Source of the DNA: Fervidicoccaceae archaeon
GTDB lineage: Archaea > Thermoproteota > Thermoprotei_A > Sulfolobales > Fervidicoccaceae
DNA length: 64,000 nt
Direction: 5' to 3'
Assembly: GCA_038878695.1 (NCBI GenBank)
Contig: JAVZVD010000003.1
Location: 186,001-250,000, forward strand
In this document: positions 42,937-47,583 of the stretch, in pieces
Layout of the letters: each line of letters starts with the position of its first letter
Numbering within the stretch: position 1 is the stretch's first letter
Notes under the pieces: model-generated
What the model was told of the DNA's origin: nothing
The model's input: only the letters and a program-made list of their open reading frames with translations
The model's database searches: none
Position numbers and translations under genes: made by a program

Positions 42937-43464
42937 GTGAAGATCGCGGAAGAGAAGACCAAGATAGCGGTGGTCGAGGCGTACTCCGGGAAGGTAGTCA
43001 ATAAGAAGATCATCGAGGGGGAGAGCATAGAGGAGGTCGTTAAGAGCGTGGCCTCCGAGCTCCTCAGAGAAAAGTGGTTGCCTAAGCTGAGCGACTTCAT
43101 CGTATTGAGGGATAAACTCGACGTAGAGCTCGAGCTCCCGCTCAGCGACGACGAGTACGCCTTCTACAAGAGGTTCGACCTCAAGAAGATAAACTCAAAC
43201 CTGGCCTCGGCCAGTCTACCGCTTTATTTGATAGTCTACGAGAGCTTAAAGCTCTCAGAGGATGAATTCCACGACAGAGGTGTGGCCGCCGTCTCGGTTG
43301 TTCACGACGAAGAGGACCTCGAAGAGCTGATTGAGCTACTCGAGGAGACGACGAAGGCCCCCACCCTAAGAGAGGAGGAGGTCGAAGCTCTCAAGGAGCT
43401 AGAGAGCGAGCTGATAGAAGAAGAGAAAAAGAGCAGAAGTCGCGGGGGTAAGTCCAAGGCTTAA
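42937..43464 (+). CDS. Hypothetical acidic protein
   Basis: 175 residues starting MKIAEEKTKIAVVEAYSGK. The first half (ESIEEVVKSVASELLREKWLPKLSDFIVL) looks folded with mixed strands and helices; the C-terminal 60 residues are charged and coiled-coil-like (ELESELIEEEKKSRSRGGKSK) with a basic tail. I do not recognise the family. The start is GTG 42937, about 40 bp after a TATA element (about 42883-42893). It precedes the tRNA-Gln half directly. Confidence 0.75.
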   Translation: MKIAEEKTKIAVVEAYSGKVVNKKIIEGESIEEVVKSVASELLREKWLPKLSDFIVLRDKLDVELELPLSDDEYAFYKRFDLKKINSNLASASLPLYLIVYESLKLSEDEFHDRGVAAVSVVHDEEDLEELIELLEETTKAPTLREEEVEALKELESELIEEEKKSRSRGGKSKA

Positions 43465-43472
43465 GCTTAAAG
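43465..43472 (+). promoter_or_regulatory. TATA box for the tRNA-Gln 5' half
   Basis: GCTTAAAG lies about 30 bp before base 43499, the same spacing as the TATA box of tRNA-Asp in this window. It supports active transcription of the tRNA half. Confidence 0.6.
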
Positions 43473-43498: not shown

Positions 43499-43554
43499 AG
43501 CCGGGTCGTCTAGCGGCCAAGGATGCGGGGCTTTGGACCTCCCCCACCCGACCC
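43499..43554 (+). tRNA. 5' half of tRNA-Gln (anticodon UUG) with GC-rich trailer: candidate split tRNA
   Basis: Bases 43499-43536 read as tRNA-Gln positions 1-37: acceptor strand AGCCGGG, D stem GTCT/GGAT with loop AGCGGCCAA, anticodon stem CGGGG and loop CTTTGG with anticodon UUG. The expected continuation (A38, CCCCG, T arm, CCCGGCT) is absent here and I find no match elsewhere in the window. Position 37/38 is the canonical archaeal splice site. It is followed by a GC-rich tail ACCTCCCCCACCCGACCC (43537-43554), as in the 5' halves of trans-spliced tRNAs in Nanoarchaeum and Caldivirga. A TATA box sits at the right distance. Alternatives are a tRNA pseudogene or a long intron. Confidence 0.6.
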
Positions 43555-43600: not shown

Positions 43601-44326
43601 TTGGTCAGAGAGAAAGTCTCGAGGCCCGGCTCAGAGTTCGAGGTGATTTATAACGCATCCAGGTGGCTCCTCCTCGAGGAGAAGAGGAAAACGGCTAGAA
43701 GGCTCATGGAGCCCATGCGTAGATGGGGACTCAACCCAATAGTCCACGGGAGCGTAGCTCGAGGCGATGTGAGCCCGGAGAGCGACGTGGACGTCTTCAT
43801 CCCTACACCGATTCCTCCCTACGTTGCAGAGCTCGTGGTCGATGAGAGCGGCTTCAAAATCTTGGAGAGGCTCCTGGTCCAGGCTACGCCGAGGCACACG
43901 CCCAAGGCCTATCTAGTTCTCGAGCCAGCGGAGAAGGTCGTCGTGAGCTTCCCGCTGGCTCGCCTCCTGCCGCGCGAGCTCGAATTCTACTACTTCGGTG
44001 GAGCGCTAGACCTAGAAGGTCTCCTGAGAGGAGAGAGGAGGCCTGGAGTTAACAAGAGGCTCGAGCTGATCAGGCCGACACCGAGGGGACACGTGGCGGC
44101 GTCTATCTTGGGCATAGAGCCCGAGGTCGCTAAGGTGCTCGGCGTGAGTCTCGAGACTGTGATGGAGAGAGTGAGAGTACTCACGCGAAGAGATGAGTTG
44201 GGCAGGACGGGCGTCTTCGTTAAGAGGAGGTTAGGGCCCGGCGAATCTTTCGAGGAGGCGCTAGAGGAGCTAGCCGCGAGGAACCCGGCCGTACGCAAAG
44301 TCCTCGAGGAGAGAGGTGGCGCGTGA
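43601..44326 (+). CDS. Nucleotidyltransferase (Pol-beta-type fold)
   Basis: About 241 residues. The catalytic motif is VHGSVARGDVSPESDVDVFI: the G-S-x-x-x-G helix turn followed by the two metal-binding Asp of D-x-D. Length and the C-terminal part (IEPEVAKVLGVSLETVMERV...) suggest an archaeal predicted nucleotidyltransferase of the COG1665 type, by recollection, not by search. TTG 43601 is chosen because the open frame to 43523 runs through the tRNA half; a TATA-like CAATATTGG (43565-43573) supports a near-leaderless start. It overlaps the radical SAM gene by 4 bases (GTGA), so the two are coupled. Substrate unknown. Confidence 0.72.
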   Translation: MVREKVSRPGSEFEVIYNASRWLLLEEKRKTARRLMEPMRRWGLNPIVHGSVARGDVSPESDVDVFIPTPIPPYVAELVVDESGFKILERLLVQATPRHTPKAYLVLEPAEKVVVSFPLARLLPRELEFYYFGGALDLEGLLRGERRPGVNKRLELIRPTPRGHVAASILGIEPEVAKVLGVSLETVMERVRVLTRRDELGRTGVFVKRRLGPGESFEEALEELAARNPAVRKVLEERGGA

Positions 44327-46908: not shown

Positions 46909-47583
46909 GCAGAGGAACTCCACGAGGAGGCGGCATCTATCCTTCTCCACTTTGCATCTCCTCAGCTCTTCTATGATCTGCGCCCTCATACGGCTCAGCT
47001 CGTCGCTCAATCCTACGAGGAACGAGAGCAGAGACGCGAGGTTCTTCGACCTCCTCGTCGCGCTAGCTCTCCCGAAATCAACGAAGACGGGCTCTCCCCC
47101 TCTCTTAGTCAACATGACGTGCTTATGCGGCCTGACCAACTCTCCGTGGTCTACTCCGATGAGGTCGAGGGCTAGGGCCTTTCTCAGGAGAGAGCATATC
47201 TGGCTCGGTCTCAACCTCCCCCCTCGATCTAAGAAATCCGCGAGCTCCTCCCCCTCGATCAGCTCCATGTGGACGAACCTCTCGGAAAAGGAGTAAACCC
47301 TCGGAGCGAGCTTCACCTCCGAGGACTTCTCCAAGAGGAGCAGAAAGAGTCCCTCCTTGAGCGGACTGGCGTTAGAGTCCAGCCTCGGGACCTTGATCAG
47401 CGTCTTGGTCGGAGCGTTAAGCAAGAGGAGCGAGTCCGTCCCCTTGGCGTAGGGTCGAAGATCTTCGAGCGAGAACCCGGCCGCGACTAGCGCATTAATA
47501 GTCTCGAGGCACTCGCGCTCGTCGCGGTCGGGTGGATAACAGGCTATGCTTTCTCGAGCTCTAGGCAATAGGGGAGGAGCCAT
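46891..47583 (-). CDS. Predicted RIO/Bud32-like protein kinase
   Basis: About 230 residues of a compact kinase fold: LIKVPRLDSNASPLKEGLFLLLL (possible Lys and helix C), hinge MELIEGEELADFLDRGG, catalytic loop GVDHGELVRPHKHVMLT in an HGE form, and the metal-binding Asp in VFVDFGRAS (DFG). The combination without a C-lobe activation segment resembles RIO and Bud32-type kinases. The start is ATG 47583 (40 bases inside the CCA gene) or TTG 47568; the long open frame to 47949 is a shadow of the CCA gene. Co-transcription with cca and thpR hints at a role in RNA metabolism. Confidence 0.68.
   Translation of the reverse strand: MAPPLLPRARESIACYPPDRDERECLETINALVAAGFSLEDLRPYAKGTDSLLLLNAPTKTLIKVPRLDSNASPLKEGLFLLLLEKSSEVKLAPRVYSFSERFVHMELIEGEELADFLDRGGRLRPSQICSLLRKALALDLIGVDHGELVRPHKHVMLTKRGGEPVFVDFGRASATRRSKNLASLLSFLVGLSDELSRMRAQIIEELRRCKVEKDRCRLLVEFLCSEVGA

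What the first reader, a model, noticed from the sequence alone, without database searches (positions are those of the whole stretch)
43499..43554. Promoter-bearing 5' half of tRNA-Gln(UUG): candidate split (trans-spliced) tRNA
Bases 43499-43536 match tRNA positions 1-37 with anticodon UUG, and the gene breaks exactly at the canonical archaeal splice point 37/38. A GC-rich tail (43537-43554) follows, as in known split tRNA 5' halves, where this tail pairs with the leader of the 3' half. A TATA box sits 30 bp upstream, the same as for the intact tRNA-Asp here. I find no 3' half within the window; weak chance matches such as GGTCGGGTGG near 47527 lack a T arm. Alternatives are a truncated pseudogene or an unusually long intron.
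Basis: partly seen in the sequence, partly recalled or inferred. Interest (0 to 1): 0.8.

Follow-up and report, generated by a model that had tools for sequence, protein, structure and literature searches.

The report
Both glutamine tRNAs encoded in halves
In this small heat-loving archaeon, both glutamine tRNAs are written as separate left and right halves at four distant places in the genome, and matching sticky tails would let each left half find its own right half to be spliced together; relatives show that this arrangement is old and widespread rather than a freak.

Summary

The missing 3' half lies on another contig (G000:C2:22825-22880). Its leader GGGTGGGGGAGG is the exact complement of the window tail CCTCCCCCACCC. 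Together they form a canonical bulge-helix-bulge (BHB) that splices at 37/38. A second, independent pair encodes tRNA-Gln(CUG) (5' half C1:573532-573569 minus; 3' half C3:73327-73382). No contiguous tRNA-Gln was found in this 98%-complete genome, so both glutamine isoacceptors depend on trans-splicing.

The two pairs are insulated from each other: each has a 12-nt perfect cognate match, against runs of 4-6 nt for non-cognate pairs, and the leader base opposite anticodon position 34 is A for UUG and G for CUG.

Trans-encoded tRNA-Gln with complementary tails and leaders was found in 25 genomes, including all eight held of the window's own family. There the UUG 5' half keeps the same neighbouring gene across five genera. 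Fourteen genomes use one 3' half for both anticodons, always with G opposite position 34.

Split tRNAs are a known kind. Split tRNA-Gln outside Nanoarchaeum, its family-wide conservation, and private pairs for two isoacceptors are not in the papers I could read. Expression and splicing are untested.

The parts
43458..43471 (+). BRE/TATA-like promoter GGCTTAAGCTTAAA of the 5' half (overlaps the last codons of the upstream DUF2286 gene)
   Evidence: 11.1 bits at -41 on a matrix from 30 tRNAs of the same genome
43499..43536 (+). 5' exon of split tRNA-Gln(UUG), positions 1-37
   Evidence: joined with the C2 3' half it is called tRNA-Gln(ttg) by ARAGORN
43535..43537 (+). 5' bulge GG^A of the bulge-helix-bulge; predicted cleavage between 43536 and 43537
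43538..43549 (+). trans-pairing tail CCTCCCCCACCC, exact complement of the leader at G000:C2:22825-22836; one G-U pair extends it to 43550
43601..44326 (+). NTP_transf_2 (PF01909) gene, TTG start; conserved neighbour of the UUG 5' half in all eight genomes of the family
42937..43464 (+). DUF2286 (PF10051) gene, conserved upstream neighbour in G003, G004, G007

Best explanation
Window 43499-43554 is the 5' gene of a trans-spliced (split) tRNA-Gln(UUG). Its transcript ends in a C-rich tail. That tail anneals to the G-rich leader of a separately transcribed 3' half (G000:C2:22825-22880). In the duplex, nucleotides C32-U35 pair with the leader's GAAG, leaving 3-nt bulges GG^A and AG^C. This is a canonical bulge-helix-bulge that the (alpha-beta)2 splicing endonuclease would cut at 37/38, after which a tRNA ligase joins the exons into a 76-nt tRNA-Gln with encoded CCA. 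A second, separate pair (5' half C1:573532-573569 minus; 3' half C3:73327-73382) makes tRNA-Gln(CUG) in the same way. Different tails and a different base opposite position 34 (A versus G) keep the two pairs apart. Shown by sequence: the four loci, the complementarity, the BHB geometry, the absence of intact genes, and conservation in relatives. Inferred: transcription, annealing in vivo, cleavage and ligation.
For: Orphan 3' halves found. The second 5' half was found. Each tail and leader shares a 12-nt perfect complement, with non-cognate runs of 4 and 6; 9 and 3 of 20,000 dinucleotide shuffles reach 12. The UUG 12-mer complement occurs at two places in the genome besides the tail itself, one of them the leader. 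The predicted structure is a BHB with the central helix co-varying with position 34. The same BHB register holds for 72 of 73 cis-disrupted tRNA-Gln genes in relatives: opposite 34 is A in 43 of 53 UUG genes and G in 20 of 20 CUG genes. Trans pairs occur in 25 genomes with tails that differ between lineages; a run of 11 or more standard pairs is seen in 97% of cognate pairs against 2.3% of pairs between lineages. All 44 other expected tRNAs are contiguous or intron-containing. Two splicing endonuclease subunit genes are present. The UUG 5' half keeps one neighbouring gene across five genera.
Against: There are no RNA data. The promoter of the UUG 3' half is weak (5.1 bits). Tails and leaders are pyrimidine- and purine-biased, so duplex energy alone does not separate cognate from foreign pairs (17% of foreign pairs are as strong as the weakest cognate pair); only in-register runs do. 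ViennaRNA prefers a slightly shifted register (bulges of 3 and 2 nt). The genome is a draft in five contigs.
Confidence: 0.95

Rival explanations
1. Truncated pseudogene: a tRNA-Gln(UUG) fragment left by recombination or integration, with an intact functional copy elsewhere.
For: tRNA genes are frequent integration and rearrangement sites (PMC3218864).
Against: No intact copy was found: the 5' and 3' halves are two each and never adjacent in this genome. The 38 nt are unmutated, the tail matches a leader on another contig, and the locus is conserved in eight genomes.
Confidence: 0.02
2. One gene with a very long cis intron (tens of kb), spliced from one primary transcript.
For: Some relatives have cis gaps of 146-728 nt between the halves, so a continuum from intron to split exists.
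Against: The halves lie on different contigs. In the single-contig relative G002 the UUG 5' half and the 3' half are about 46 kb apart and the CUG 5' half is hundreds of kb away. A single 3' half serving two 5' halves cannot be a cis intron.
Confidence: 0.01
3. The halves are expressed as regulatory or degradation-type tRNA fragments, and glutamine codons are read by some other tRNA.
For: No expression data exist for this organism.
Against: No other tRNA in the genome carries UUG or CUG. The leader base opposite position 34 tracks the anticodon, which only matters for BHB splicing.
Confidence: 0.02

Closest known systems
Split tRNAs of Nanoarchaeum equitans, which include tRNA-Gln(UUG) (PMC4390854)
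   Same: Two transcripts joined through complementary leaders and a BHB; the same amino acid and anticodon; one 3' half shared by two isoacceptors is known there for tRNA-Glu and is seen here in 14 relatives
   Different: This is a Thermoproteota lineage, not a reduced parasite. Here both Gln isoacceptors are split, each with its own 3' half.
Split tRNA-Asp and tRNA-Lys of Desulfurococcales (Aeropyrum, Thermosphaera, Staphylothermus; PMC3218864)
   Same: Same broad archaeal group, same trans-pairing of about 13 nt, BHB, promoter on each half
   Different: Those are one split tRNA per genome, halves adjacent or close, considered recent and sporadic. Here two per genome, halves on different contigs, conserved family-wide with synteny.
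Split and tri-split tRNAs of Caldivirga maquilingensis (PMC4390854, PMC4033280)
   Same: Trans-spliced halves; one half shared between synonymous anticodons
   Different: Different amino acids (Gly, Ala, Glu). The present genome uses private rather than shared halves for its two isoacceptors.

Membership tests
split (trans-spliced) tRNA | 5' and 3' halves encoded at separate loci, no contiguous gene | tested here: met
   C3:229499-229536 and C2:22843-22880 for UUG; C1:573532-573569 and C3:73345-73382 for CUG; no intact copy
split (trans-spliced) tRNA | Complementary 3' tail of the 5' half and 5' leader of the 3' half | tested here: met
   12-nt perfect complement in each pair, shuffle support 9 and 3 of 20,000; 25 genomes
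split (trans-spliced) tRNA | BHB motif at the exon junction | tested here: met
   bulges GG^A and AG^C, 4-bp central helix 32-35; same register in 72 of 73 cis genes
split (trans-spliced) tRNA | Joined halves form a complete tRNA | tested here: met
   ARAGORN calls tRNA-Gln(ttg) and tRNA-Gln(ctg); the unconstrained ViennaRNA fold is not the cloverleaf
split (trans-spliced) tRNA | Each half has its own promoter | tested here: inconclusive
   strong for three of the four halves, weak for the UUG 3' half
split (trans-spliced) tRNA | Splicing endonuclease of the (alpha-beta)2 type | tested here: met
   two PF01974 genes, one with the PF02778 N-domain, one without; assembly into a heterotetramer is inferred
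split (trans-spliced) tRNA | Joined mature tRNA detected in RNA | not testable with these tools
   no RNA data
intron-containing tRNA (cis) | Both exons in one transcript on one strand | tested here: not met
   halves on different contigs; about 46 kb apart or more in single-contig G002
permuted tRNA | 3' half encoded just upstream of the 5' half in one transcript | tested here: not met
   no 3' half in the window upstream or downstream

The most novel reading that the evidence does not exclude
Splitting of tRNA-Gln is an old, vertically inherited trait: already present in the ancestor of this family, with the UUG 5' half locus kept beside the same gene across five genera, and recurrent or older still in the wider order. 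The 3' half switches over time between one shared RNA serving both isoacceptors (always G opposite position 34) and two private, mutually exclusive RNAs (A or G opposite position 34), so that a whole amino acid depends on trans-splicing with insulated partner recognition.
Probability: 0.65. Interest if true: 0.75.

Novelty: new member of a known kind. Interest (0 to 1): 0.64.

Why it matters
Split tRNAs have been described as sporadic and recent in Crenarchaeota (PMC3218864), and the ancient-versus-late origin of split tRNAs is an open debate. A split tRNA that is conserved with synteny across a family, and that shows both shared and private 3' halves, gives a comparative series in which tail-leader co-evolution, partner exclusivity and the direction of change can be measured. 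It also offers a simple rule to test at the bench: G opposite position 34 permits one 3' half to serve both anticodons, whereas A restricts it to UUG.

Tried and rejected
Pseudogene and long-intron readings were rejected (see rivals). The match CCCGGCT near 43627 was rejected as a 3' end because it lies in the coding region of the downstream gene and has no T arm. T-arm orphans at C3:73221 and C3:39892 read by eye as multi-intron tRNA-Trp and tRNA-Pro(CGG), not more split halves; the missing initiator tRNA-Met was found at C1:182920 with several introns. Duplex free energy between tail and leader was tried as a discriminator and is too weak because of base composition; in-register run length was used instead. 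The CUG 5' partner of the second 3' half of G004 was sought and not found. The first synteny test used a wrong frame and was repeated. Literature searches for split tRNA-Gln or split tRNA in Fervidicoccus returned nothing relevant; the library is open-access only.

Full report
1. The observation. Bases 43499-43536 of the window are tRNA positions 1-37 with anticodon TTG, and the gene stops at the canonical 37/38 site. ARAGORN and Rfam find only tRNA-Asp in the window. The window is G000:C3:186001-250000 of a 1.11-Mb genome in five contigs, 98.3% complete with 0% contamination.

2. The 3' half. A scan of the genome for the T-arm motif gave the tRNA T arms plus orphans. Two orphans share one tRNA body, CCCCCGYGACCGGGGTTCGAATCCCCGCCCGGCTACCA, whose acceptor strand CCCGGCT pairs fully with AGCCGGG of the window half. 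One, at C2:22843-22880, is preceded by GGGTGGGGGAGG GAAG AG. The first twelve bases of that leader are the exact complement of the window tail CCTCCCCCACCC at 43538-43549.

3. A second split tRNA. Searching the genome for the first 18 bases of the 5' half, up to 3 mismatches, gave exactly two places. The other (C1:573532-573569, minus) is identical except for anticodon CTG, and its tail CCGCTGCCGCTC is the exact complement of the leader GAGCGGCAGCGG of the second orphan 3' half (C3:73327-73338). No contiguous tRNA-Gln was found. The other 44 expected tRNAs are accounted for as contiguous or intron-containing genes, counted by hand.

4. Geometry. With the two RNAs annealed, C32-U35 pairs with GAAG (UUG pair) or AGAG (CUG pair), leaving bulges GG^A and AG^C. 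This is the canonical BHB, and the cut gives G37 joined to C38. The joined sequences are called tRNA-Gln(ttg) and tRNA-Gln(ctg) by ARAGORN. ViennaRNA's own optimum for the duplex has essentially the same helices with one bulge a base shorter, and its unconstrained fold of the joined UUG sequence is not the cloverleaf. The canonical register is supported by 73 distinct cis-disrupted tRNA-Gln genes in relatives: 72 form all four central pairs in that register, and the base opposite position 34 is A in 43 of 53 UUG genes (including three CCTT loops) and G in 20 of 20 CUG genes.

5. Specificity. The longest Watson-Crick run is 12 in each cognate pair and 4 or 6 in the non-cognate pairs. Of 20,000 dinucleotide shuffles, 9 (UUG) and 3 (CUG) reach 12. 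In the whole genome the UUG leader 12-mer occurs at one place besides the leader itself and the tail's own reverse strand, and the CUG 12-mer at two. Non-cognate pairing of the UUG leader with the CUG half also breaks the central pair at position 34 (C against A). Energy alone is a poor discriminator, because tails are C-rich and leaders G-rich.

6. Promoters and machinery. A promoter matrix learned from 30 tRNAs of this genome gives 11.1 bits at -41 for the window half, 12.3 at -55 for the CUG 5' half, 10.7 at -55 for the CUG 3' half, and only 5.1 at -54 for the UUG 3' half. The UUG 3' half is followed within about ten bases by an intron-containing tRNA-Met gene that scores poorly for a promoter of its own (L027), so the two may be co-transcribed (inference). 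Two splicing-endonuclease genes are present, one with the N-terminal domain and one without, as expected for the (alpha-beta)2 enzyme known to process split tRNAs (PMC3218864).

7. Relatives. In 59 genomes of the same order, tRNA-Gln is contiguous, has a 37/38 intron, or is split. In the window's family (f1) every one of eight genomes is split. Split tRNA-Gln is also found in family f5 (for example contig BEWT01000008, Desulfurococcaceae archaeon AG1), in one f7 genome, in a group of MAGs typified by SKW88 and KUA_Bin18, and in MAGs labelled Acidilobaceae or Thermodiscus. Twenty-five genomes have trans pairs in which the tail and leader complement each other and all four central positions pair. 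Runs of at least 11 standard pairs occur in 97% of cognate pairs against 2.3% between lineages. Within the SKW group the stem keeps pairing through changes on both sides: CCGCCGCC with GGCGGCGG, CCACCGCC with GGCGGTGG, CCGCTGCC with GGCAGCGG.

8. Shared and private 3' halves. Fourteen genomes have one 3' half for both 5' halves, and every one of these has G opposite position 34, which pairs with C34 and wobbles with U34. Some of these are incomplete MAGs, but G002 is a single contig at 99% completeness. The window's genome has two private 3' halves, A for UUG and G for CUG. Synteny in f1 shows two old 3'-half loci. One is followed by tRNA-Met (G000, G004, and by sequence G001) and serves UUG. 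The other lies beside a convergent conserved gene (G000 CUG 3' half, the second 3' half of G004, and the 3' half of G003, G006 and G007). Whether shared or private came first is not decided here.

9. Age. In all eight f1 genomes the UUG 5' half is followed by the same NTP_transf_2 gene (PF01909), and in several preceded by the same DUF2286 gene. This implies one origin in the family ancestor, while the pairing sequences have since changed. That differs from the Desulfurococcales cases of 2011, judged sporadic and recent (PMC3218864).

10. Known or new. Split tRNAs, shared halves, BHB processing and a split tRNA-Gln(UUG) in N. equitans are known (PMC4390854; PMC4033280). The 2015 review states that all isoforms then known use one constitutive half and one alternative half (PMC4390854); the two private pairs here depart from that. 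I found no earlier report of split tRNA-Gln in Thermoproteota in the open-access library, which does not exclude one in databases or subscription journals.

Noticed in passing
G000:C1:182920-183060 (L312): Initiator tRNA-Met appears to carry about three introns, one of them in or near the T loop; missed by the Rfam tRNA model.
   Followed up: partly
G000:C3:73038-73244 (L062): tRNA-Trp with several introns lies about 80-100 bases upstream of the Gln(CUG) 3' half on the same strand.
   Followed up: partly
G000:C1:573500-573610 (L081): The leader upstream of the CUG 5' half (GGCGGGGGGCGG) can pair with bases just beyond its tail (CCGCCCCCC), which could enclose the 5' half in a hairpin; the fold is no more stable than shuffles.
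   Followed up: partly
G000:C2:24260-24496 (L285): The second splicing endonuclease subunit gene (no N-domain) lies about 1.4 kb from the Gln(UUG) 3' half.
   Followed up: no
G043:C1:1414762-1415561, G061:C66:5727-6510, G069:C116:552-793: tRNA-Gln(UUG) halves in tandem with gaps of 728, 712 and 170 nt: possible intermediates between long intron and adjacent split halves.
   Followed up: partly
G004:C33:110420-110453 (L319): Second 3' half of tRNA-Gln in G004 whose 5' partner was not found in the 91%-complete genome.
   Followed up: partly
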